A stretch of 44,292 nucleotides of DNA from a virus. Shown here piece by piece: positions 335 to 40,032 of this stretch. Positions within the stretch are counted from its first letter, which is position 1, and every line of letters begins with the position of its first letter. The position numbers and the translations under genes are program-made. The DNA lies in IMG/VR virus record IMGVR_UViG_3300036851_000079, positions 1 to 44,292 of that record. One strand, given 5' to 3'. The notes beneath the pieces were generated by a model. The model was not told the DNA's origin and ran no database searches. It saw nothing but the letters and a program-made list of their open reading frames with translations.

Positions 335-649
335 TCAGATGCTCGGCGGTGGTGCGAAGAAGCACTTGCGCTCCCCAGCCCATTGACATCGCCAATACGC
401 CCCGTCCGGGCTCGGCTGAGCCTCATGAAACGGGACGACCTCTCGCAGGCTCTTGACGAGATATCCGGTCGCCGTGATCGAGATGTCATCGCCTGCAATC
501 TCAAAGCAGTCACGCTGGCCGCAGCAGAGTTCGCCAGCCGCGTTGCGGAAGCCACCGCGGTTGATCCACTCGGCGGGACCGTGGGCAATTGCAGTGGTCC
601 CCAGCACGATCAGGGCGACGAGGATGTAGGCGAGGAACGCGCGCATCAT
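335..649 (-). CDS. Small secreted Cys-containing protein at end of lysis region
   Basis: 104 residues. The first 22 or so form a clean signal peptide (MMRAF, then a hydrophobic core, cleavage near AIAHG). The mature part holds four cysteines, including a CC pair (residues 42-43) and QRDC, consistent with a disulfide-bonded periplasmic protein. It resembles small exported proteins often found in rhizobial phages and prophages. The start overlaps the upstream stop as ATGA (646-649), and it is the last gene of the leftward late transcript. A role in lysis or superinfection exclusion is only inferred from position. Confidence 0.75.
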   Translation of the reverse strand: MMRAFLAYILVALIVLGTTAIAHGPAEWINRGGFRNAAGELCCGQRDCFEIAGDDISITATGYLVKSLREVVPFHEAQPSPDGAYWRCQWAGERKCFFAPPPSI

Positions 650-1020
650 GACTGCACCCGCGGCGGCTGATTATCAATCTTCCCTTCCATGCGCTCGAGC
701 CGGCCCTCAATCTTCTCGCCAAATGACTTGATGTCGGTTTTGATCTCAGCCATCAACGGTCCGAAGGTCTCCTTTTTCACATAATGATCGCGGATATAGA
801 TTTCGACCTCGCTAATCTTCGTTCGCAGTGCGGCAGCCGTCTCACCAAACTGTCGGCTCTGCTGGTCAATGCGTTCGTCGATTTCCTTCCCGGACGCCGC
901 AATCGCTGCCAATAAGTCGGTCTTGACCTGCGCAAACTTCCAGATGCCAGTCCCAAGCAAGACAATGAACTGCAACAGGAATCCGGCGGTTGCAACAATG
1001 GTGCCCACATGATCCCCCAT
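646..1020 (-). CDS. Membrane-anchored coiled-coil protein of the lysis cassette
   Basis: 124 residues from ATG at 1020, preceded by a G-rich Shine-Dalgarno (GGGGGTG). One N-terminal transmembrane helix (about residues 5-27) is followed by a long charged amphipathic helix (DLLAAIAASGKEIDERIDQQ onward) predicted to be coiled coil. This architecture fits an inner-membrane spanin-like or holin-accessory protein. A longer version starting GTG at 1161 would overlap the upstream stop as GTGA, but its extra 47 residues are low-quality, so the ATG at 1020 is preferred. The segment 1021-1157 is then leader sequence with no other gene visible. Confidence 0.7.
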   Translation of the reverse strand: MGDHVGTIVATAGFLLQFIVLLGTGIWKFAQVKTDLLAAIAASGKEIDERIDQQSRQFGETAAALRTKISEVEIYIRDHYVKKETFGPLMAEIKTDIKSFGEKIEGRLERMEGKIDNQPPRVQS

Positions 1021-1157
1021 CGTCACCCCCGGAACCGGGTCGACGACCTCCAGAGAATTGTGATTTGATGCATTACAGCCGTCATGGGGAGCCCTCTCGC
1101 TCTCTGTGGTGGCTAGGGCGTCCACTTGTGAGCCACACTTGTGGGCGCCCGCTGTGA

Positions 1158-1358
1158 TCACTCAGTACGCTCCGCCCGACCCTCTTTGAGACCGGCTGCA
1201 TGGGCTTCTGTTTTGGTTGTTTCTACCAGCTTATCCATCATCGAATTGGTTGCCTTATGCACCTGTTCGATCTTGCGCGCGTTGCGCCATGACAATACGA
1301 AGGCGCCGAATGCAGCAAGCGCTGTGATAATCTGGGCAATTTCGCCGTAGGTCGGCAT
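1158..1358 (-). CDS. Holin-like single-span membrane protein
   Basis: 66 residues: a short N-terminus, one transmembrane segment (about residues 7-24, IITALAAFGAFVLSW), then a basic and acidic amphipathic tail. Size and topology suit class III-type holins or small accessory membrane proteins. ATG at 1358 was chosen because the hydrophobic helix starts directly after it; the longer upstream reading is low-complexity Arg-rich sequence. It lies among four other membrane proteins. The holin call rests on position and topology only. Confidence 0.65.
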   Translation of the reverse strand: MPTYGEIAQIITALAAFGAFVLSWRNARKIEQVHKATNSMMDKLVETTKTEAHAAGLKEGRAERTE

Positions 1359-1362
1359 GGAG

Positions 1363-1584
1363 TCAGCGCAGCGATGCAGGCGACACAGTGCCGTTGAACC
1401 AGGTGCGGAGAACCCAGGTAACCACCGCGGTCGCGCCCTGGATCGTCGCCACGACGGCAACCTGTGTATCGGTGTCGAGGTTAATGCCCTTGAGGGCCAG
1501 AAGCGTTGCAGCCAGGGACACCGCCTGCGTCCAGTTGATCTTCGACGCCCACGCGGTTTTAACGGGCACCAACTCTTTTTCCAT
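1363..1584 (-). CDS. Small membrane protein, putative holin
   Basis: 73 residues with a strong Shine-Dalgarno (AGGAG, about 7 bases upstream of the ATG). Two moderately hydrophobic stretches (about residues 20-34 and 43-62) are separated by a short polar turn, as in two-span phage holins. It is four bases from the next gene. Together with 1158-1358 it makes a candidate holin/antiholin pair, but neither has a diagnostic motif, so the exact role is inference. Confidence 0.7.
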   Translation of the reverse strand: MEKELVPVKTAWASKINWTQAVSLAATLLALKGINLDTDTQVAVVATIQGATAVVTWVLRTWFNGTVSPASLR

Positions 1585-1593
1585 AACGTTCTC

Positions 1594-1680
1594 CTATTCA
1601 CCAAGCATGAAAAACGCGCCGACGAGCCAGATGCCGCCGGCCGCGATGACGACGCACACAACGAATTTCGTCCAGTTCAT
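1594..1680 (-). CDS. 28-residue single-span membrane miniprotein
   Basis: A very short gene: basic/aromatic start MNWTKF, then one transmembrane helix to the end (VVCVVIAAGGIWLVGAFFML). Its ATG overlaps the upstream stop as TGATG (1678-1682), typical of translational reinitiation in this genome. Probably part of the lysis cassette. No family recognised. Confidence 0.55.
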   Translation of the reverse strand: MNWTKFVVCVVIAAGGIWLVGAFFMLGE

Positions 1681-2129
1681 CAATAGCCACATGCGGCTTG
1701 AGCCTTGGCGATCTGGCTGTTCGTGTAGCCGCGATTCCTGGCCTCGCGCTTGACACCCTCCCGCCCGAGGATGGCGATGCCAAAGGCGATCTGTGAGCAC
1801 ATGCCCGGCGGTGGAGGCGTCGGACTGGCGACGGCTGCCGGCCTGCGTTGAGGCTTCGGCTGTACGGTCGGTTTCGCCTTTGGTTTCGGTTTCACAACTG
1901 ACTTTGTCGGCTTGGCAGCAGGCGCCAGCCGTGGCGGCCGTACCGGCGCAGTTATTCTCGGTTTGGGGGCTTGGGTAGCGGGCGGGACCGGAGCCGCGAC
2001 AGGCGGGGCTGGCTGTGGCCACAGCGCGGCCTGTAGCCGCGACCACTCGGCAGACGGTTGGGCCTGCATGGCGACAAGCAGCAGGATCAGCCCCAGGGTG
2101 GCCGGGACTGAGCCTTCGCGCCATGTCAT
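1680..2129 (-). CDS. Pro/Lys-rich periplasm-spanning membrane protein (spanin-like)
   Basis: 149 residues: a signal-anchor helix (about residues 9-22), a long Pro/Ala/Lys-rich linker (about residues 36-108) resembling the stiff TonB spacer, and a small C-terminal domain with two cysteines (residues 111 and 147). A proline-rich rod anchored in the inner membrane could bridge the periplasm as a u-spanin does. Its stop overlaps the start of the 28-residue membrane gene. The spanin idea is inference from architecture and position; a TonB-like or cell-wall-binding role is the alternative. Confidence 0.7.
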   Translation of the reverse strand: MTWREGSVPATLGLILLLVAMQAQPSAEWSRLQAALWPQPAPPVAAPVPPATQAPKPRITAPVRPPRLAPAAKPTKSVVKPKPKAKPTVQPKPQRRPAAVASPTPPPPGMCSQIAFGIAILGREGVKREARNRGYTNSQIAKAQAACGY

Positions 2130-3564: not shown

Positions 3565-3780
3565 ATGTGGTGGAGACTGTTCCAAGCTCTCATTGCGTTC
3601 GGCGTCGTCGCTTCGAATATCCGGTATCAATGGACGCCGAACGGCTATCTCGCCGTCATCGTCGCGATCGGCGCAGCCTTCATCGTCACGGCCGCGCTTA
3701 CTGAATTGAGAGCAGCCCTCGCGAGCCTGCGCTCCCGAGCAAGCCGCCGAGCAAGCCGGAACGCAACAGATTTTGAGTAG
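3565..3780 (+). CDS. Antisense two-span membrane miniprotein
   Basis: 71 residues: two hydrophobic helices (about residues 5-18 and 28-46) and a basic tail (RSRASRRASRN). ATG lies 13 bp from the divergent tail-fibre start and is preceded by AGGGTG at good spacing. The last 83 bp are antisense to the 3' end of 3698-5413. Function unknown; it belongs to a set of plus-strand membrane ORFs inside the late operon. Confidence 0.45.
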   Translation: MWWRLFQALIAFGVVASNIRYQWTPNGYLAVIVAIGAAFIVTAALTELRAALASLRSRASRRASRNATDFE

Positions 3781-5413
3781 CCCCGGGCAAGAGCTGATTG
3801 CCGAGATAGCTTTGAACTGGACCGGACATCAACGCGCGGCCGGCCAATGGAGGGCCGGCGAGAGCCGCCAGCCCACCCATAGCCGCACCCGGAGCGCCAC
3901 CAAAGAACGCGCCGAGCGTTGCCGCCGCTGCTGCAGGAATGCCTTGAGCATAGGCCCGCGGCGCCGTGCCGCTCTGTGGCAGCGACCGCATGACCGCCTC
4001 TCCCGAGCGTGCGAGCTCGGCAAAGTCGCCTTGGCCCCGTGCATAGGCCCGTCTGCCCATTCCCACCGTGGTATTGCGAAGCTGAGACGGGGAGATCAAT
4101 CCTTGGGCTGCGTTCTCCCCCGCACCTGTCGCCGCCCGCTCGATCACGAGCATGTTGCGGTACTGGTTGCGGGCTTGGCGCCACGCCCCGAGGTCCGGCG
4201 ACACAGTGCGGGCCAAGGTACGTTCCATGGCGGCATCCAAGGCCATCCGCATATCCCGGAGCGTATCGGCCACCTCCGGCTGCGCTGCGGCGCCTCGAGC
4301 TGCTCGCTCAATTCTGGACCGAAGGGATTGGTAGACCTCGCCCGGAATGACGCCCCGGTTATTGCCGAGCGCAGTCGCAATCTCGGCCTCGAAATTCTCA
4401 ATGACCGGCGCCCGATTCGGAGGAGAGACTAAGCTGCGATAGTCGCCGATCGCCGTCCGAAGCTCCTGGCCCATCTGAGGATCGGGACGAAGCGTGTTCC
4501 GGGCCGCCAAGGTGTCGAAGTCGTTTCCGATTCGAGTAAAGGCCCGATCGATGACTTCCGGCGTGGCCCGCGGCGCATTCTCGCCCGCCCTACGGAGAGC
4601 CGCAGCCGTAAATTGCTCCGCCGAGCGCGTAGCCGTCGCTGCAGCACGTCCGCCCGAGCCGGGGATATCCCCGAGGGCCTGCTCAAACCATTGCAGGGGC
4701 TTGCTGCCGGTGACCTGGCCCGCCGTCAGGTCCACGCCCTCGTTCCGGAGCGCCTGGACGGCATCCGCGCGGCCGGGAGCCATGGGGAGCGGTGTGATGG
4801 CTCGCCGGCCGGCAGCTAGAGCAAATGGAGCGGCAAAGCCTCCCGCCGCTTGAGCATAGGGCTCCGCCTCCGTTCCTTTCGTCGCCTGCCCCGCCGTCTC
4901 GCTCGTCACCGCAGGCGCGAGCACTTGAGACAACCCACGCCGGACTAGTCCACCTGGACCAGCCAGAAGTCCAGGCAGGAACTCGCCCGCCGTCCGGGCG
5001 TATTCCCCCGCCGTCGTCTTCGGCTTGTAGAATGGCCATGTAAACGATTCTATGGCCCCCTGGATGCCCTGTGAGGTCGGCAGGCCAAAGCGCGGGGATG
5101 GCCCAACGGACTCAAGACCGGGCTCTACAAGCCCGCCAGAACCCACGGGAGCCACAGGGGCTGGTTGCTGTCCCTGACCCGTTACGGCATTGGCGGTCAA
5201 GCCCTGCAGGCTGCCAATATCGCCCGGCAGGCCAGCCAAGCCGATCGCCGCCTTGGCAACGCCGATACCGCCGGATTTGGCCAGATCAAGCGCGCGCTCG
5301 CCCAAGCCCATAGAGGGCTCGGATGAAGATAGTTGCCCGAGGGCCGCAGCAATATCAGCGTCCGTCGCATCGTCCGGAAACTGATGCTGCTTGCCCTCAA
5401 ATTGAACGATCAT
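3698..5413 (-). CDS. Internal virion / DNA-ejection protein
   Basis: 571 residues. It opens with a short module common at the N-terminus of podovirus internal proteins (FEGKQHQFPDDATDADIAAAL, residues 5-25). Gly/Ala-rich amphipathic segments and long Ala/Arg-rich helices follow (about 220-450), with a hydrophobic Gly-rich C-terminus (about 490-571) that could insert into membrane. Size and place, beside two other Gly/Ala-rich virion proteins, suit an ejectosome component of P22 gp16/gp20 or T7 gp15/gp16 type. Start and upstream stop share ATGA. Confidence 0.7.
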   Translation of the reverse strand: MIVQFEGKQHQFPDDATDADIAAALGQLSSSEPSMGLGERALDLAKSGGIGVAKAAIGLAGLPGDIGSLQGLTANAVTGQGQQPAPVAPVGSGGLVEPGLESVGPSPRFGLPTSQGIQGAIESFTWPFYKPKTTAGEYARTAGEFLPGLLAGPGGLVRRGLSQVLAPAVTSETAGQATKGTEAEPYAQAAGGFAAPFALAAGRRAITPLPMAPGRADAVQALRNEGVDLTAGQVTGSKPLQWFEQALGDIPGSGGRAAATATRSAEQFTAAALRRAGENAPRATPEVIDRAFTRIGNDFDTLAARNTLRPDPQMGQELRTAIGDYRSLVSPPNRAPVIENFEAEIATALGNNRGVIPGEVYQSLRSRIERAARGAAAQPEVADTLRDMRMALDAAMERTLARTVSPDLGAWRQARNQYRNMLVIERAATGAGENAAQGLISPSQLRNTTVGMGRRAYARGQGDFAELARSGEAVMRSLPQSGTAPRAYAQGIPAAAAATLGAFFGGAPGAAMGGLAALAGPPLAGRALMSGPVQSYLGNQLLPGATQNLLRSGLLGGLLGSAGSRGLLSIQ

Positions 5414-7011
5414 TGTTGCTGGACCCTGCGGAGCCTGCCATCAGGGCCGCGCTCCCAGTTGACCACGCCAGAAGGCGTTGGCGTAGACGGGGCTGGCGCG
5501 GGAGTGCCGGAGGCCGCCGGCTGCGGGCGCCCCTCTTGCGGCTTATAGAACGTGCCGCCGCGAAGCTCATTTGCTCTTTGCCGATTGAGCTCGAGCCGGC
5601 GATTGGCCATCACAATTGCCCGGTCATAGATTTTCTGCCGAACAGCGTCCGGTTGTGAAGTTGAGCCTTGGATTTCAAGCAGGATTTTGCGCTCGCCTTC
5701 AGTCGGCGCCGCACCAAAAATCGACTTGAGTTGTGAGAGTGCGTTGGATTGGATGAGATTATCGAGATCGGTCGTTGTTTGTCCCGCCCCCGGTCCTGTC
5801 AAGCCGGCAACATAACCGCGCTGCGAGGCAAGTGGTCCCGAGAAAGCGTCCTTACTCAGAGTCTTCGCTTGGTTGAGCGCGGTCAATGCGGCCTCCGCCG
5901 CCATTACGCCCTCGTCGGCCTCGAGGATTGCCTTCTTGTCGGTCGCCGTCAGCGGCTGCTGATCCTCGCGCGGCATCTTCCCGGTGAGGATATAGGAACG
6001 AAACTGCGGGTCATTGGGGTCGAGACCGCGCCCACGAACAGCCGCCTCGCGCTCGGCAATCTGCTCTGTCGTCTTGTCCTTGGCGCCCACAGTTGATGCA
6101 ATATATTTGGGATCAGCCGGGCCTCCGGGAATTGGTACAAGGCCGCCACCTTGAGTGCGAGAAAAGCCGGCGGGGACACCAAGCAAGGGGTCCATTCGCT
6201 TCTGGATATATGATTGTGCCAACTGCGGATTAGCAGCCAACAGCGGCCTCAATGCAGGCTCAATATCCGGCGCGTTCGCAGCGTACTGTTGCAGTGCCGC
6301 CAACCCCTGATTTTTGATATCGGCCTGCTGGCCGCCGACATATCCTTCGAGGCCCCGGCCGATCGACTGTCCGAGGTTGCCACCCTGTAGAGCCCCCGCC
6401 AGATAGCCCAGCCACGCATTCGCCGGGAAGGCGCCGCCGAGTAGACCGCCCCCACCAGACGGAGGGCCGTTGCCGAGAATTCCAGCCATTGTCCTGCCTG
6501 CGGTTGGTTGGGCGTTCGGAGGAATTGCCGTTGGATCGTCGCCGGCCTGTTCAGGAAGCCCGGCAGGACTTCCGGTCGCCGCATAACTCAACGGCCCGGT
6601 GAACCACGACGCCTCTTGGTTTCGCCGATCGACCAAGCCCGGCAGCGTTTTGCCACCGGCCTTGACGTACTGGGAAAACAGGTTACGGGCCGTGTCCCAG
6701 TCGCCAGCACTGACTGCCCTGCCAAGTCCTTTATCCGCCCATCCGGGACCGGCATTGAAGGTGAGGGACGTAAGAGCCGCCCGAGGTCCTTCAGGAAGCC
6801 CAGGGAAGCGTTGATCCACAAGCCCGGCGGCATTCCCTATCTCGTCTCCAAAACGCTGCTCAGCAGTCGCCCTATCAATCACCTCGCCGGGGTGCTTCGC
6901 TCGCGTACCGTAACCGCTGGTGTACTGGGCATAGTCCCATTGGGCGCGCGGATTATAGCCCTCAAACCGCTTGATGGCGTCAAGATATGGCAGATCGAGG
7001 ATGCCGGGCAC
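5410..7011 (-). CDS. Virion-associated protein with N-terminal GH24 lysozyme domain
   Basis: 533 residues. Residues 1-140 are a T4-type lysozyme: Glu17 (RFEGY), Asp26, then YTSGYGT with Thr31, and a downstream FNAGPGW helix typical of GH24 enzymes. The Asp-Thr spacing is one residue shorter than in T4 lysozyme. The remaining 390 residues are Gly/Ala/Gln-rich and helical, like ejection proteins, so the enzyme probably travels in the virion and opens peptidoglycan during DNA entry. No other lysozyme, amidase or peptidase is seen in the genome, so it may also serve lysis. It overlaps the next gene as ATGA. Confidence 0.8.
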   Translation of the reverse strand: MPGILDLPYLDAIKRFEGYNPRAQWDYAQYTSGYGTRAKHPGEVIDRATAEQRFGDEIGNAAGLVDQRFPGLPEGPRAALTSLTFNAGPGWADKGLGRAVSAGDWDTARNLFSQYVKAGGKTLPGLVDRRNQEASWFTGPLSYAATGSPAGLPEQAGDDPTAIPPNAQPTAGRTMAGILGNGPPSGGGGLLGGAFPANAWLGYLAGALQGGNLGQSIGRGLEGYVGGQQADIKNQGLAALQQYAANAPDIEPALRPLLAANPQLAQSYIQKRMDPLLGVPAGFSRTQGGGLVPIPGGPADPKYIASTVGAKDKTTEQIAEREAAVRGRGLDPNDPQFRSYILTGKMPREDQQPLTATDKKAILEADEGVMAAEAALTALNQAKTLSKDAFSGPLASQRGYVAGLTGPGAGQTTTDLDNLIQSNALSQLKSIFGAAPTEGERKILLEIQGSTSQPDAVRQKIYDRAIVMANRRLELNRQRANELRGGTFYKPQEGRPQPAASGTPAPAPSTPTPSGVVNWERGPDGRLRRVQQQ

Positions 7012-7940: not shown

Positions 7941-8351
7941 TCAAAGAACTTTCTCTATGACCAAACGTTTCTCATGGTATCCGTCAAGCGCGCGTAGCCA
8001 GCCGCGCCGGCCAATCACACGCACCGCGGAGCATCCCTGGTCCCGCGCCCACTCCTCGATCCCGTTCATGAAGTGCAGCCACCGCTCCATTTGCTTCCCG
8101 CCACAGGCCACCACCTCGCACACCGCATTGCGGAATTCGGTGCTGACGACCTCGATCACAGCCGCCGCCAAGATCGTCTCAGCCCCGTCCCAGGCGACAA
8201 ATAATTTGGCCCGGCCGGATCGAACCGCCTGCTCCACCGGAGCGAATGAGCTGATGCCGCCCTTCTTGATCGCGACATAGATCAACCCGGAGACGCGCGG
8301 CCATATCTGTGGTACAAGATCGAGCGGAATGCAGATAAGTTGGCAGGCCAT
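7941..8351 (-). CDS. GNAT-like conserved podovirus protein
   Basis: 136 residues. The pattern of strands and helices (LFVAWDGAETILAAAVIEVV, then a Cys-rich ACGGKQMERW loop, then GCSAVRVIGRRGW) resembles the GNAT acetyltransferase-like proteins encoded beside tail genes of epsilon15-like podoviruses. The canonical acetyl-CoA loop is not clear (ACGGKQ is the nearest), so enzymatic activity is uncertain. Its start codon shares CATG with a plus-strand miniprotein. Confidence 0.7.
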   Translation of the reverse strand: MACQLICIPLDLVPQIWPRVSGLIYVAIKKGGISSFAPVEQAVRSGRAKLFVAWDGAETILAAAVIEVVSTEFRNAVCEVVACGGKQMERWLHFMNGIEEWARDQGCSAVRVIGRRGWLRALDGYHEKRLVIEKVL

Positions 8352-8496
8352 GGACGGTTGGACAGTTCCTTGGTTCTTGATCCCGATCGGGATTCTTGCG
8401 GCGGTTGTCGCCGCCCATTATTGGTATGAGTATTGGTTTCAGATGACGCCCGAGGAACGCAAGGAAGATCGCGAGCAGCACGAGCCCTGGCACTAG
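8350..8496 (+). CDS. Antisense 48-residue single-span membrane miniprotein
   Basis: A plus-strand gene filling exactly the gap between two minus-strand genes. Its ATG (8350-8352) overlaps the divergent start of 7941-8351 in CATG, and its TAG (8494-8496) overlaps the stop of the convergent gene 8493-9326 in CTAG. The product is a clean membrane protein: WFLIPIGILAAVVAAHYW helix (about residues 8-25), an aromatic YEYWF interface, then a charged tail (MTPEERKEDREQHEPWH). The Shine-Dalgarno is weak. Function unknown. Confidence 0.65.
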   Translation: MDGWTVPWFLIPIGILAAVVAAHYWYEYWFQMTPEERKEDREQHEPWH

Positions 8497-9326
8497 GCGT
8501 AGAAGCTCGCAAACACCACTTTCCACTTAGCGGCCGCTATATCCCGTCCGATATTACTGAAATGCGCACTGTCTTTCCGACCTGCCCCAGTGATGTCGTC
8601 GGTGTCAGCGCCAGCAAAGATCGTCGTCCCATTGACGACAGCCGCCTGTGCCGCTTGTACCGTGGCGTCAATCGTGTCGTTCGCGAACGTGCATTTGCCG
8701 ACAAACCAAGGCCAGTTGACGTTTTGCCCCGGTAGCGCCGCGGCCATCTCGCGAAAGCCTGCCTCCCAGGCGGACTGAGGCAAATTATTCACGCCGTCAG
8801 TCTCTCCCAGGAGGGAGAACACTGCAGGGCAGATGATCGCCCCGTCAGGCGCCGCATTGATCAGATCGCGCTTGCGTCGAATACCTGTGATCAGCCGGTG
8901 GTGGAGACGCCCGCTACTTTTCCAGTCGTTGACCGACGAGCCGCCAACCGGAATGTTGCAGCAGATGAACTTGTCGAAGCTTCCATCCCCAACGCAGAGA
9001 TCGCCGAGCTTGCCGATCATGCTGGCGCCGGGGCCGTCGTCTGTGGCGCCCAAGATCGGATCAGCACATTGCGTCACGACACCATCGAAGGGATTGAGGC
9101 AAAGCACCTTCGTCGGATTGAGAACAGTATAAGGCGTTTCCAGCGAATTGGCGGCGTTCGATTGGCTGACGTTCAAGAGAACGAGCGTCTTCTCTCCCGC
9201 CACGATCGGGGTTTCTACAACCGTTCGTCCCGTCGCATCCCTGAATGTCGGCCACCCACCGATGTCCAACCATTCATTGATCGGATACAAATTGATGGGC
9301 GCACTACCTCCGGCCATCATTGGCAT
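8493..9326 (-). CDS. SGNH-fold carbohydrate esterase / tailspike deacetylase
   Basis: 277 residues with the motifs of SASA/SGNH sugar O-acetylesterases: nucleophile Ser56 in VSQSNAAN (the usual GQSN block), LLGETD at 173-178 matching the third block, and the DxxH pair Asp252/His255 in KDSAHFSN. It probably removes acetyl groups from host surface polysaccharide during adsorption. It follows the spike gene 9326-10402 with a TAATG overlap, which supports joint production as virion components. The Gly before the Gln of block I is replaced by Ser, a mild deviation. Confidence 0.8.
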   Translation of the reverse strand: MPMMAGGSAPINLYPINEWLDIGGWPTFRDATGRTVVETPIVAGEKTLVLLNVSQSNAANSLETPYTVLNPTKVLCLNPFDGVVTQCADPILGATDDGPGASMIGKLGDLCVGDGSFDKFICCNIPVGGSSVNDWKSSGRLHHRLITGIRRKRDLINAAPDGAIICPAVFSLLGETDGVNNLPQSAWEAGFREMAAALPGQNVNWPWFVGKCTFANDTIDATVQAAQAAVVNGTTIFAGADTDDITGAGRKDSAHFSNIGRDIAAAKWKVVFASFYA

Positions 9327-10402
9327 TACACCATGATCTCTGTCACCGAGATGTGAGCGGTCGTTGTGCCGGTGAAGAACACCGCAGTTCCAGGGCTGTT
9401 CGTTTTGTAATAGACCTCGTAAGTCTGCTCAGATGTGGCCATTGGCCAATCGAAAAAGGTGTTAGCAGAGTTCGAAAGAATATAACCGCCGCCCGCGGAA
9501 GCCGATTTTTCCCCACCGACAGGCGTGCCACCACGTTCAACAGTCGCGAAGCTTGACACGCCGGCATCCGTTTGACCCAACATGGCATCATAGGACACCA
9601 GCATGACATTCGCTGCGCTCGTTGGTGTGATTGGTGTAGAAAGTCCGGTTGCGGTGAATGTTGTGTTGGTCGTGGTGATTTGGCCGCTCACGGTATTGGA
9701 GCTGACCTGCACCACATCACCCGGCTTGTAGACGCCCGGGCCTACCAACTGGACAAGACTCAGGTTAGTTGTCGTCCACGTTCCGGCGGTCAAGCCAGAT
9801 ACATTCCACTCCGCATAGGCTAGAATGCGCATCGCCTTCGACGATACGGCGCTTCCTGTGTAGATCACCCCAGCGCTATCCGCCCCGCCCGCCCCGCCCT
9901 CGGCAGTCGAGGAGGCCAAGCCCTCGACCAGCGGATAGAATCTCCCCGATGCGAAACGCTGAATAGCCCCGATGCGAAACGTCCCGCCATCATTGAACCC
10001 AACAATCCAGAGCCGGAACGCCGTCGATGACGTGATGCCAAGCGTTGAGCCTGACGAAATGACCAGGGACGTGGCGGCCGTGATTTCCAGAGCGACAACA
10101 TCGCCGGTCGTTCCCGTCACATTACGAAAGAAGACAGTGACCTTATCGGTCGAGCTGGGATCAGTCCCCGCATTTGTCTTCAAGGCAATCGTGAGCGCGC
10201 TCGCAGCCGCGCTCAGCACGAATTGCCCGTTCGTCATTCCCAGAATGTACCCAAACGCACTTGCAGCATTACTGAACCCGAGAAACGACAGCACAAAAGC
10301 AGAGAGGCCATTGATTCGCTCGGCAACCTGCCGCAGCAGCGCAACAATCCTGGACGTGTTGGTTTCGTTACCAGGAATAAATCCAACCTTGTCAAAGGCC
10401 AT
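9326..10402 (-). CDS. Tail fibre/spike-like structural protein
   Basis: 358 residues, beta-rich with Thr/Ser/Gly repeats and almost no Cys, as in trimeric tail fibres. The N-terminal 60 residues (RIVALLRQVAERINGLSAF) could be a helical virion-binding segment. It lies between the tail-hub protein (TGATG overlap) and the SGNH esterase (TAATG overlap), so a receptor-binding spike or its adaptor is the best guess. No catalytic motif is visible in it. Confidence 0.65.
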   Translation of the reverse strand: MAFDKVGFIPGNETNTSRIVALLRQVAERINGLSAFVLSFLGFSNAASAFGYILGMTNGQFVLSAAASALTIALKTNAGTDPSSTDKVTVFFRNVTGTTGDVVALEITAATSLVISSGSTLGITSSTAFRLWIVGFNDGGTFRIGAIQRFASGRFYPLVEGLASSTAEGGAGGADSAGVIYTGSAVSSKAMRILAYAEWNVSGLTAGTWTTTNLSLVQLVGPGVYKPGDVVQVSSNTVSGQITTTNTTFTATGLSTPITPTSAANVMLVSYDAMLGQTDAGVSSFATVERGGTPVGGEKSASAGGGYILSNSANTFFDWPMATSEQTYEVYYKTNSPGTAVFFTGTTTAHISVTEIMV

Positions 10403-12552
10403 CAGCGCCGGCCCTCGCGCACGAAGTCAGGCTCCACACCCGAGGCGAATGTCCATGTGGCGGCTGCCGGAATACGGACTCGAGCTCTAGCCAGTCTCGT
10501 CGAGACATTCGCCGGACAGCGCCCGCTTGCATCCACGGCCTGTTCGCCGCTGTAGGCTACCGCGCTTTGCATATTCTCCCGCGCGCCAACAGACACGAAA
10601 CAATTCGTGGCATCAGTCAGTGGCCGGGCGCCCCTTACCCGCACGCGCCGCCCATCTATGGCCTGCTCCGAGGTATCGACCGTCGCCTCGAGGTTCGCGC
10701 CCGTGAAGAACCCGAGAGCGTGCGTGCTGTCGAAAAATGCCATCTTGGGAATGGCCGACAGCGCCACATCATCGAGCGAGAACGACAGCGCGTCGATGCT
10801 CGGCGAGATCGTATCCAGGTTTTCCAGTGTCAGGCCGGGCGAGCCGATCGGCGCCATGAACTCGCCGGCTTGGTTGACGATGACGGCGCCCCGCTGCAGG
10901 ACATAATCGTAGATGATGATCTTGTCGAATAGCCCTGTTGTCCCTGCGCCTGACTTGTAGCCAATGTAGATGCGCGATCCTTCCGGATCAGCGGCAGCAA
11001 TGATCAGTTGCAGCGACGCCTTGTCGTAATCGTTGAAGAACGTCCGGTCGAACTTCTCTTTCCCAAACGGCTCCGGATAGCCTGTCCCCGTGATCTGATG
11101 GAAGCCCTGCTGCGACAGAAAGAACACCCGCTCGCCGGTCCGCACGATCGAATACGGCGCCAGCAGTCCCTTGTCCTCCGTGACAACATCAAACTCGAAT
11201 GCCGTCGTCGTATCACCAGGCCGGAACACCATCCGCCGGATACGCGAGTCCTGGAACACAACACCGTATTCCCCACCCGCGACGCCACGGACAATTCCTC
11301 CATTCGGGAAGTCCTGCGAACCCGCAAGACCGCTCGACCATGTCGTGATTCCGCCGAGATCACTCCATTGGATTCGGAACGGATTGGAGGTGTGCCCCGT
11401 AAGCACAAGGAACCGATTGACGACGGCAACGTAGGCGCACTGCGGAGGAGACCCCCCCAGGTCGGCAAAATTCGTGCTGCTGCCAAGCGTGAATGCCTGT
11501 GGAGCGACATTCGGCTGGACCGCAATCACGACGCTGCCGAACTGCGCGAACTGCCAGTGGTGCGTGCTCGGCAACGCCGAATAGGTCGTATTGCTCTTGG
11601 AGACATCCTCCCAATCAAGAGCTGTATTGTTCATCTTCAGCAAACGATTGGACGTGGCCGCGAAGATCGCAACCGTGCCGTCCGTCAACAGCGCCTGGAA
11701 ATAGCCCCGACACGTCCCATTTGCCGGTGCATCATAGGCCCGGCTCGGGGAGTTGAATGCCGCCGTCCACCTCGCGATCCCGACCGAGAGCCGAAACTCA
11801 TCAATCCAGCCGTTCCATGGCGATGTGGTGATTGCGCCAGCCGCGCCAACCGCAAGCACACTCGAGCTGTTGAAGACGGTTCCAGAAAACGAGACATCCC
11901 CTCCTTCCTGGGTCCCATCGATGAACAGCTTGAGCGTATTTCCGGTCCTGACCAGGGCGGCATGATGCCAGCCCGTATTAACGGCATTGGTAAACTGCGT
12001 GGTCCCGGTTACAACGGTATAGTTCGATCCATCCGTCGATACGCTGGCGACGATTACATTGCCGGAGGTGCGGTTCATCGACCACGCACCATCAGTGCTC
12101 ATGCTGTCCATCTGGCCGGCAAGGTTCAACGCCGAACCGCCGGCCGCATTAACTCGAAACCAGAAGTCGATGGTGAAAGTGCCGGAACCCAACGAGAAAT
12201 CGGCATGGTCTGGAGTCGTGACCCAATCGCCCGTCCCGTCAAATAACCCAGAGGCCCCGCCAAACTTGGACTGCGCCGTATCGATCTGCGCATTTCCAGC
12301 CGCAGTCCAGGTATGAGCCGAGCCGCCCGCATTGCTGTCGGTAATGGTTGTGGACGCATCCGTGCCGTCAAAGTGCAGCAGGATTTTCGTGTAAGTGTCA
12401 TTACCGAGCGCAAGCGGCTGCGAGAAGGCACCAAACTGCTTCACGGGCGAGTAGCCGTCACCCCTTGGAACGACATTCTGCGCAAGCTGCGTCGTCTGGC
12501 CCTGGTAGTTGACTAAATCCGGTTGCCATGAGCCGAATCCGAGAATCGGCAT
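10402..12552 (-). CDS. Tail hub / DNA-stabilisation protein with inserted LamG domain
   Basis: 716 residues. The ends match packaged-DNA stabilisation or tail-hub proteins (P22 gp10 type): N-terminus SWQPDLVNYQGQTTQLAQNVVPRGDGY (read as two short motifs), and a beta-propeller-like body from about 290 with IQWSDLGG and RIYIGYKSG. Between about residues 58 and 270 lies a concanavalin/LamG-type jelly roll: LLHFDGT, FDGTGDWVTTPDH, FTIDFWFRV, GWHHAALVRTG, LFIDGTQEG, WNGWIDEFRLS. The insertion likely adds a glycan-binding face to the hub. It overlaps the adaptor gene at 12552. Confidence 0.8.
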   Translation of the reverse strand: MPILGFGSWQPDLVNYQGQTTQLAQNVVPRGDGYSPVKQFGAFSQPLALGNDTYTKILLHFDGTDASTTITDSNAGGSAHTWTAAGNAQIDTAQSKFGGASGLFDGTGDWVTTPDHADFSLGSGTFTIDFWFRVNAAGGSALNLAGQMDSMSTDGAWSMNRTSGNVIVASVSTDGSNYTVVTGTTQFTNAVNTGWHHAALVRTGNTLKLFIDGTQEGGDVSFSGTVFNSSSVLAVGAAGAITTSPWNGWIDEFRLSVGIARWTAAFNSPSRAYDAPANGTCRGYFQALLTDGTVAIFAATSNRLLKMNNTALDWEDVSKSNTTYSALPSTHHWQFAQFGSVVIAVQPNVAPQAFTLGSSTNFADLGGSPPQCAYVAVVNRFLVLTGHTSNPFRIQWSDLGGITTWSSGLAGSQDFPNGGIVRGVAGGEYGVVFQDSRIRRMVFRPGDTTTAFEFDVVTEDKGLLAPYSIVRTGERVFFLSQQGFHQITGTGYPEPFGKEKFDRTFFNDYDKASLQLIIAAADPEGSRIYIGYKSGAGTTGLFDKIIIYDYVLQRGAVIVNQAGEFMAPIGSPGLTLENLDTISPSIDALSFSLDDVALSAIPKMAFFDSTHALGFFTGANLEATVDTSEQAIDGRRVRVRGARPLTDATNCFVSVGARENMQSAVAYSGEQAVDASGRCPANVSTRLARARVRIPAAATWTFASGVEPDFVREGRR

Positions 12553-38459: not shown

Positions 38460-38783
38460 ATGACCACTGAACCTGACCTCGAGCGCATCTACCTGACCGA
38501 CACGGAGACGATCCGTCGAATGGTCAAGCTCGGCATCCCCGAGAAGAGGGCGCGCGAGACAATCAAGACATTGGACGAGCACCCCCGCAGCGGCTTCCCG
38601 CCGAAGAACAAATTGTGGGGGAATAGACGGTCGTGGGTTGCAGTTAGGGCTTATCTGGAAACATCGTTTGGAGATAAAATGGTGGACGGCGCGGCTAGGC
38701 TCGCTACCGAACACCGGGACCGCACCCGGCCGCCGCGTCCTCACCTCACTGCGGTGCCTCGCGGAGGGCATGACGATGACTGA
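38460..38783 (+). CDS. Excisionase-like DNA-binding protein
   Basis: 107 residues. The first 55 residues look like a small winged-helix/Xis fold (YLTDTETIRRMVKLGIPEKRARETI, then FPPKNKLWGNRRSWVAV), with an Arg/Pro-rich tail. It directly precedes and overlaps the integrase gene, the usual place for xis. No close family is claimed. Confidence 0.6.
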   Translation: MTTEPDLERIYLTDTETIRRMVKLGIPEKRARETIKTLDEHPRSGFPPKNKLWGNRRSWVAVRAYLETSFGDKMVDGAARLATEHRDRTRPPRPHLTAVPRGGHDDD

Positions 38784-40032
38784 CGAACTGAAGCCACCGC
38801 GCCTTGAGGGCGCGCCCGGTCTCGTGTGGCGTAAGCGTAAAGCTGGCTGGGCCGCTGTATGGCAGCCTCGCACTGATCTCGTGAACCGCGGCTACTCGCA
38901 CAAAAACGCAGAGGGTCAAGATCGGCAATCCGAGGTTATTGCCATCGTTGATGGCGAACTGAGCGACGCAGTGAAGGGGTTCATTATCGAGACCTGCAAG
39001 CGCTGGCAAGGCCATATGCTGGCCTGGTCCCACGATGGTGTGCCTGTCCAACTTCAATTCGACGGCACGCTCCGCAGTCTCATTAATTGCTATCAAACCG
39101 ACCCCGACAGCGGATATGGCAAAATTCGCTATCGTACCCGGCTCAACTACAATTCCATGCTGCGCCGCCTTGAACGCCAGTGCGGCGACGAACTCATTGC
39201 CAATCTCCGCACCCGGACAATTATTCGCTGGTATGAGGACTGGTGCAAGATCGGCGTCGCTACAGCCCATAGCCTTGTCGATATGATGAGGACCCTTCTC
39301 GGATTTGGTGGGTCAATCCTCGAAAATGAGGAATGCGCGCGGCTAAAGGGACTTCTGCACAATATGAACTTCAAGATGAGCAAGCCACGGGAGAAAATTC
39401 TCACGGCCAAACACGTCATTGCCATCCGGGCCAAGGCCCACGAGATGGGGCTTCCATCGATCGCGCTGGCGCAGGCGTTTCAATTCGAATGCACCCTTCG
39501 CCAAAAGGACGTCATCGGCGAGTGGATTCCGATCGAGGAGCCCGGTGCATCCGATGTGATCAACCACCGCACCGGCAAGAAGTGGATGCGTGGCCTGCGA
39601 TGGCAGGAGATCGACCAAGCATTGGTGCTGCGGCACACAACCAGCAAGCGCCAGAAGGATATCGAGGTTGCCCTCCGTCTCGCCCCAATGGTCATGGAGG
39701 AGCTGGAGAAGATCGGCCTCGACAAGCTGCCGGCGAGCGGGCCGATCGTCATCAGCGAGCGCACGCTGCGGCCCTATCGAGCCCGTCAGTTCATTGAGCG
39801 TTGGCGGAAGGTCGCCAGAGCAGCCGGCGTGCCCGATGACATCTTCAACATGGACAGCCGAGCTGGCGCAATCACTGAGGCAACCGACAGCGGCGCCGCG
39901 CTCGAGGACGTACGGCACGCAGCAACTCATAGTGATGTGGCGATGACCCAACGGTATTCCCGAGCGCAGGCGCAGAAGACCGCAACCGTCATGGACCTTC
40001 GAGTGAAGCACCGGAACAAGAAGGAAACATAA
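38776..40032 (+). CDS. int: Tyrosine recombinase integrase
   Basis: 418 residues; ATG at 38776 has GGAGG eight bases upstream. Catalytic pattern of tyrosine recombinases: Arg242 (ECTLRQKD), Lys291 (TTSKRQKD), Arg362 (MDSRAGAITEA), His385 and Tyr394 (HSDVAMTQRYSR). The His of the usual HxxR box is replaced (MDSR), as also seen in related rhizobial phage integrases I recall. An N-terminal SAM-like/arm-binding region spans about 90-200. It inserts the phage at a bacterial att site. Confidence 0.9.
   Translation: MTDELKPPRLEGAPGLVWRKRKAGWAAVWQPRTDLVNRGYSHKNAEGQDRQSEVIAIVDGELSDAVKGFIIETCKRWQGHMLAWSHDGVPVQLQFDGTLRSLINCYQTDPDSGYGKIRYRTRLNYNSMLRRLERQCGDELIANLRTRTIIRWYEDWCKIGVATAHSLVDMMRTLLGFGGSILENEECARLKGLLHNMNFKMSKPREKILTAKHVIAIRAKAHEMGLPSIALAQAFQFECTLRQKDVIGEWIPIEEPGASDVINHRTGKKWMRGLRWQEIDQALVLRHTTSKRQKDIEVALRLAPMVMEELEKIGLDKLPASGPIVISERTLRPYRARQFIERWRKVARAAGVPDDIFNMDSRAGAITEATDSGAALEDVRHAATHSDVAMTQRYSRAQAQKTATVMDLRVKHRNKKET

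What the first reader, a model, noticed from the sequence alone, without database searches (positions are those of the whole stretch)
8350..8496. Antisense membrane miniprotein sharing start (CATG) and stop (CTAG) with its two neighbours
A 48-residue single-span protein fills exactly the gap between two late genes. Its ATG overlaps a divergent ATG and its TAG overlaps a convergent TAG. The encoded peptide is a clean transmembrane helix with aromatic borders and a charged tail, not a random shadow. Such perfect packing suggests a deliberately antisense gene or one evolved in the gap.
Basis: seen in the sequence. Interest (0 to 1): 0.7.

Follow-up and report, generated by a model that had tools for sequence, protein, structure and literature searches.

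The report
Antisense membrane miniprotein in late operon
A temperate bacterial virus carries, backwards between two of its late genes, a tiny gene for a 48-residue membrane protein that looks genuinely protein-coding; no relative of this one was found, but the same virus and dozens of its relatives carry other conserved, mostly unannotated backward membrane mini-genes a few kilobases away, which suggests a recurring way of hiding genes that may be used while the virus lies dormant.

Summary
The packing alone is cheap (32 of 93 called genes start CATG, 7 end CTAG). But codon usage and hydrophobicity are not chance: in dinucleotide shuffles each is reached in 0.17% of open frames, both together in 0 of 4,085. 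The peptide has no homologue in any collection searched, and relatives have no homologous gap, so conservation cannot be tested on it. Following the pattern, I found two conserved antisense membrane-miniprotein families in related phages: F1 (47-95 aa, several members with the same CATG start and 4-nt stop overlap) and F2 (56-82 aa, two helices), one member of which is in this window at 3565-3780(+). Of 51 hits, 49 lie antisense to their neighbours; pN/pS is about 0.4; neither family is in Pfam, PHROGs, NCBIfam or PADLOC. They occupy the slot of antisense sieA in P22. Best reading: the 48-mer is a real, lineage-specific antisense accessory gene, probably prophage-expressed at the inner membrane, possibly for superinfection exclusion; expression and function are inferred.

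The parts
8350..8496 (+). 48-aa antisense single-span membrane miniprotein ORF
   Evidence: coding score and TM against shuffles; AlphaFold2 helix
8349..8352 (.). CATG shared by the two divergent start codons
   Evidence: read from sequence
8493..8496 (.). CTAG shared by the two convergent stop codons
   Evidence: read from sequence
7941..8351 (-). conserved 136-aa GNAT-like late gene (relatives are annotated 'acetyltransferase' or hypothetical)
8493..9326 (-). SASA/SGNH-type acetylesterase cargo gene
   Evidence: Pfam SASA, weak; relatives annotated as acetylesterase in Rhizobium phages
9326..10402 (-). 358-aa protein with N-terminus related to the ~104-aa gene that abuts the GNAT-like gene in relatives
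   Evidence: blastp E 9e-5 with the L053 protein over residues 6-71
10402..12552 (-). nozzle/stabilisation-type virion protein with an inserted LamG lectin domain
   Evidence: phrog_3287 and Laminin_G_3
3565..3780 (+). second antisense membrane miniprotein (71 aa, two helices), member of conserved family F2; overlaps the 3' end of gene 3698-5413 by 83 nt

Best explanation
ORF 8350-8496(+) is a genuine, lineage-specific protein-coding gene for a single-span inner-membrane miniprotein. It is placed antisense between two late genes of a temperate short-tailed phage, next to an inserted acetylesterase cargo gene. Being antisense, it is cut off from the late transcript and is most likely expressed from the prophage (inferred). 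It is one of several unrelated antisense membrane miniproteins that these phages keep in their late operons: this phage also has an F2 member at 3565-3780, and relatives have F1 or F2. The most likely job is that of a prophage-expressed accessory protein acting at the inner membrane, for example blocking DNA entry of related superinfecting phages as antisense sieA of P22 does. Shown: geometry, coding signal, predicted TM helix, temperate phage, recurrence of conserved antisense membrane miniproteins in the group. Inferred: expression in lysogens, membrane insertion, exclusion function.
For: Coding score 0.15 per codon, in the range of real genes (0.18 +/- 0.12), with negative means for all wrong frames; robust to training set; independent gene call; hydrophobicity and codon score each reached in 0.17% of open shuffles, jointly 0 of 4,085. 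Two conserved antisense families in related phages: F1 (pN/pS 0.2-0.58) and F2 (median pN/pS 0.40); 49 of 51 profile hits antisense; F1 members with the same CATG start and 4-nt stop overlap. Integrase and repressor-like genes. In P22 antisense sieA lies directly after ejection gene 16, and SieA blocks DNA injection at the inner membrane (PMC10883804).
Against: No homologue of the 48-mer in viral contigs, species genomes, phage records or 50 related records, so selection on it is untested. It sits in a different slot from F1, F2 and sieA and is not related to them in sequence. No sigma-70-like promoter found. No expression data. F1 and F2 themselves have no tested function.
Confidence: 0.45

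Rival explanations
1. Non-coding spacer left at the junction of the inserted acetylesterase gene; the open frame, helix and packing are accidental.
For: No homologues; the gap exists only in this lineage; open frame and shared palindromes are cheap; no promoter.
Against: Codon score and hydrophobicity each p about 0.002 given an open frame, jointly 0 of 4,085; none of 148 unassigned ORFs of 40-60 aa in the window combines both at this level of hydrophobicity.
Confidence: 0.22
2. A real antisense membrane miniprotein with a lysis-related or antiholin-like job rather than exclusion.
For: Single-span small protein; family F1 lies next to lysozyme genes in relatives.
Against: Antisense to the late transcript, so not co-expressed with it; a separate cluster of small membrane-protein genes at 335-2129 on the sense strand is a better lysis region; the 48-mer itself is not next to a lysozyme gene.
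Confidence: 0.13
3. A real antisense accessory gene with some other lysogen function, unrelated to exclusion or lysis.
For: Temperate phage; orphan peptide; position next to a cargo gene.
Against: No positive evidence for any particular function.
Confidence: 0.1
4. The gap acts as an RNA element of the late transcript (hairpins for termination or processing), and the frame is a by-product of the palindromes.
For: Perfect palindrome 8380-8393 and stem 8398-8403/8409-8414; terminator-like matches at 8400-8415 (+) and 8469-8483 (-).
Against: Folding is not better than shuffles (z -1.1 on -, +0.3 on +); no T-run follows the main hairpins on the minus strand; no Rfam match in the gap.
Confidence: 0.1

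Closest known systems
Family F1, antisense miniproteins of related phages (defined here, L133-L143)
   Same: 47-57 aa in most members, one predicted TM helix, antisense between two late genes; several members share CATG at the start and 4 nt at the stop.
   Different: Different slot (after the last ejection gene), different sequence, TM helix C-terminal instead of N-terminal.
Family F2 (defined here), including window 3565-3780
   Same: Antisense membrane miniprotein in the late operon; present in this very phage.
   Different: Two helices, conserved WTPNG motif, other slot, longer overlap with the upstream gene.
SieA of Salmonella phage P22 (phrog_7745)
   Same: Antisense membrane-protein gene in the late region of a temperate short-tailed phage; its slot (after ejection gene 16) is that of F1 and F2.
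   Different: 164 aa, no sequence similarity to F2; the 48-mer is in another slot. SieA has own promoter and proven function; none shown here.
HK97 gp15 moron
   Same: Superinfection exclusion protein of a temperate phage, predicted to be an inner-membrane protein (as cited in PMC10883804).
   Different: From a long-tailed phage; not compared by sequence here.

Membership tests
P22 SieA | sequence similarity to SieA (phrog_7745) | tested here: not met
   48-mer: no PHROG match up to E 10, while P22 SieA itself matches at 9e-109. F2 profile against SieA: hhalign probability 0.4%
P22 SieA | antisense gene directly after the last ejection-protein gene | tested here: not met
   48-mer lies between the acetylesterase and GNAT-like genes; the window's F2 ORF 3565-3780 does meet it
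P22 SieA | inner-membrane location | tested here: inconclusive
   one TM helix predicted; location not measured
P22 SieA | expressed from the prophage and blocks DNA injection of related phages | not testable with these tools
   needs lysogen transcriptomics and plating tests
F1 (this report) | sequence similarity to the F1 profile (KPREPIFGPGLPGALA...) | tested here: not met
   hhalign probability 2.6%, 20 columns of TM helix only
F1 (this report) | antisense, packed between two sense late genes with CATG start and 4-nt stop overlap | tested here: met
F2 (this report) | sequence similarity to the F2 profile (ASNIHWQWTPNGYLA...) | tested here: not met
   48-mer: hhalign probability 11%, 16 columns of helix only. 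Window ORF 3565-3780 does meet it
HK97 gp15 | sequence similarity | not tested
   no gp15 sequence was compared directly; no PHROG or Pfam family above threshold matches the 48-mer

The most novel reading that the evidence does not exclude
Short-tailed temperate phages of this group maintain a class of pocket-sized antisense membrane proteins, several unrelated families (F1, F2, the 48-mer), packed to the base between late genes and expressed only from the prophage to block superinfection; they are mostly missing from annotation.
Probability: 0.3. Interest if true: 0.75.

Novelty: new variant of a known kind. Interest (0 to 1): 0.55.

Why it matters
Antisense small genes are usually dismissed as shadows. 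Here two conserved families under purifying selection show that antisense membrane miniproteins are a regular part of the late operon of these phages, and they are absent from the family libraries searched. They are candidates for minimal superinfection-exclusion proteins, and one (F2) lies unannotated in a phage of the culturable Bradyrhizobium elkanii USDA 76, so the idea is directly testable.

Tried and rejected
Homologue searches for the 48-mer: the only hit, in the record of L012, is a 71-aa hydrophobic protein on its own record's gene strand and looks like a chance TM match. Genome-contig scan with the nozzle protein: nothing. Viral scan with the acetylesterase: nothing. RNA-element reading: folding not better than shuffles. 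Promoter scan: none. Homology of the 48-mer to F1 or F2 and of F2 to SieA: not supported. Shine-Dalgarno signal: weak and not decisive for the antisense genes. First assumption that the packing itself is strong evidence: rejected after counting CATG and CTAG in called genes. Literature searches for antisense small membrane genes in phage late operons gave nothing on point.

Full report
What is there. The window is a 44,292-base virus record. Its left half is a minus-strand late operon: terminase, portal, major head protein, nozzle/stabilisation protein, ejection proteins. It also carries an integrase and a repressor-like regulator, so it is probably temperate. Gene order and protein matches place it with Bradyrhizobium phage ppBeUSDA76-2 and similar phages; that it is short-tailed is inferred from these genes. 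The ORF 8350-8496(+) is exactly as described, including the shared CATG and CTAG.

Is it more than chance? The packing alone is not impressive: 32 of 93 called genes start with CATG and 7 end with CTAG. A 47-codon open frame arises in 20% of dinucleotide shuffles of the gap. What is unusual is the content. Given an open frame, a helix as hydrophobic as this occurs in 0.17% of shuffles, a codon score as good in 0.17%, both in none of 4,085. The codon score is 0.15 per codon against 0.18 +/- 0.12 for real genes and negative means for all wrong frames; it holds with models trained on late genes or on early genes alone. A codon-based caller selects the ORF. AlphaFold2 gives a confident helix at 10-30. 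I put the probability that it is a real gene at about 0.7.

Why conservation cannot be tested directly. No homologue was found in viral contigs, species genomes, phage records or 50 related records; the two contig scans reach close relatives only. In 82 of 98 loci with the GNAT-like gene (some are overlapping pieces of one contig) the gene upstream abuts or overlaps it, usually a ~104-aa protein, and in five more the abutting gene had only been missed by the caller. In the window the corresponding place holds a 358-aa protein with a related N-terminus, then an acetylesterase gene, then the gap. Acetylesterase genes occur elsewhere in related phages, for example upstream of the nozzle gene in L083 and L090. 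So acetylesterase plus gap is best read as a lineage-specific insertion, and relatives have no homologous gap.

The pattern beyond this gap. Calling genes in the relatives turned up other antisense membrane miniproteins. A 49-aa one in L122, with a CATG start and a CTAG stop shared in the same way, led to family F1: 11 loci, mostly 47-57 aa, KPREPIFGPG motif and a C-terminal TM helix, between the last ejection gene and, in most, a lysozyme-like gene. The window itself has, in the corresponding slot, a 71-aa antisense ORF at 3565-3780 that belongs to a second family, F2 (14 further loci; WTPNG motif, two helices). A profile survey gave 51 hits, 49 of them antisense to their neighbours. In the two exceptions, L147 and L148, no late protein of this phage matches nearby; the neighbouring large ORF looks, by eye, like an integrase. 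F1 pairs show pN/pS of 0.20-0.58, F2 a median of 0.40, both with third-position excess. Tested members are absent from Pfam, PHROGs, NCBIfam and PADLOC, and F2 is unannotated in ppBeUSDA76-2. In a survey of antisense ORFs packed between sense genes, all those as hydrophobic as the 48-mer are F1 members or the 48-mer itself.

How it probably works. In P22 the slot after ejection gene 16 holds antisense sieA, whose inner-membrane product blocks DNA injection by P22-like phages; escape mutations map to the ejection proteins gp16 and gp20 (PMC10883804). F1 and F2 sit in this slot, so prophage-expressed exclusion is the leading idea for them. For the 48-mer it is a weaker analogy, since it sits 4.5 kb away, between other genes. 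Expression and function are inferred; no promoter was recognised. No sequence similarity was found between the 48-mer and F1 or F2, or between F2 and SieA, so none is filed as a member of another's family.

Verdict. The 48-mer is probably a real, orphan, antisense membrane-miniprotein gene, and it belongs to a recurring architecture for which two conserved families are described here.

Noticed in passing
window 3565-3780 (+): A second antisense membrane miniprotein ORF (71 aa, two helices), member of a conserved, unannotated family (F2) found in 14 further viral loci and in Bradyrhizobium phage ppBeUSDA76-2.
   Followed up: yes
L133-L143, L007, L008, L072, L076, L087, L122: Conserved antisense single-span miniprotein family F1 (motif KPREPIFGPG) between the last ejection gene and the following gene, packed by shared start and stop bases; no match in the family libraries.
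   Followed up: yes
L147 around 5998-6177 and L148 around 6010-6255: F2 copies that are not antisense to late genes; they lie near a large ORF that looks by eye like an integrase, which would fit a prophage-expressed role.
   Followed up: partly
L040 8196-8459 (-), L039 8205-8534 (-): Microcystis phages have annotated antisense genes in the corresponding slot: an 87-aa hydrophobic protein and a 109-aa protein with a signal-peptide-like N-terminus.
   Followed up: partly
window 10402-12552 (-); L010, L018, L026: The nozzle/stabilisation protein has a LamG-type lectin domain inserted near its N-terminus; some related loci carry tandem copies of this domain.
   Followed up: no
window 5410-7011 (-): Lysozyme domain fused to the N-terminus of an ejection-type protein, whereas relatives have a separate lysozyme gene further downstream.
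   Followed up: no
window 38688-38754 (+): int-alpA RNA (RF02996, just above its gathering score) overlapping the region directly upstream of the integrase gene 38770-40032.
   Followed up: no
window 335-2129 (-): Cluster of small membrane-protein genes including a 32-aa hydrophobic peptide (1594-1692), probably the lysis region, mostly without family matches.
   Followed up: no
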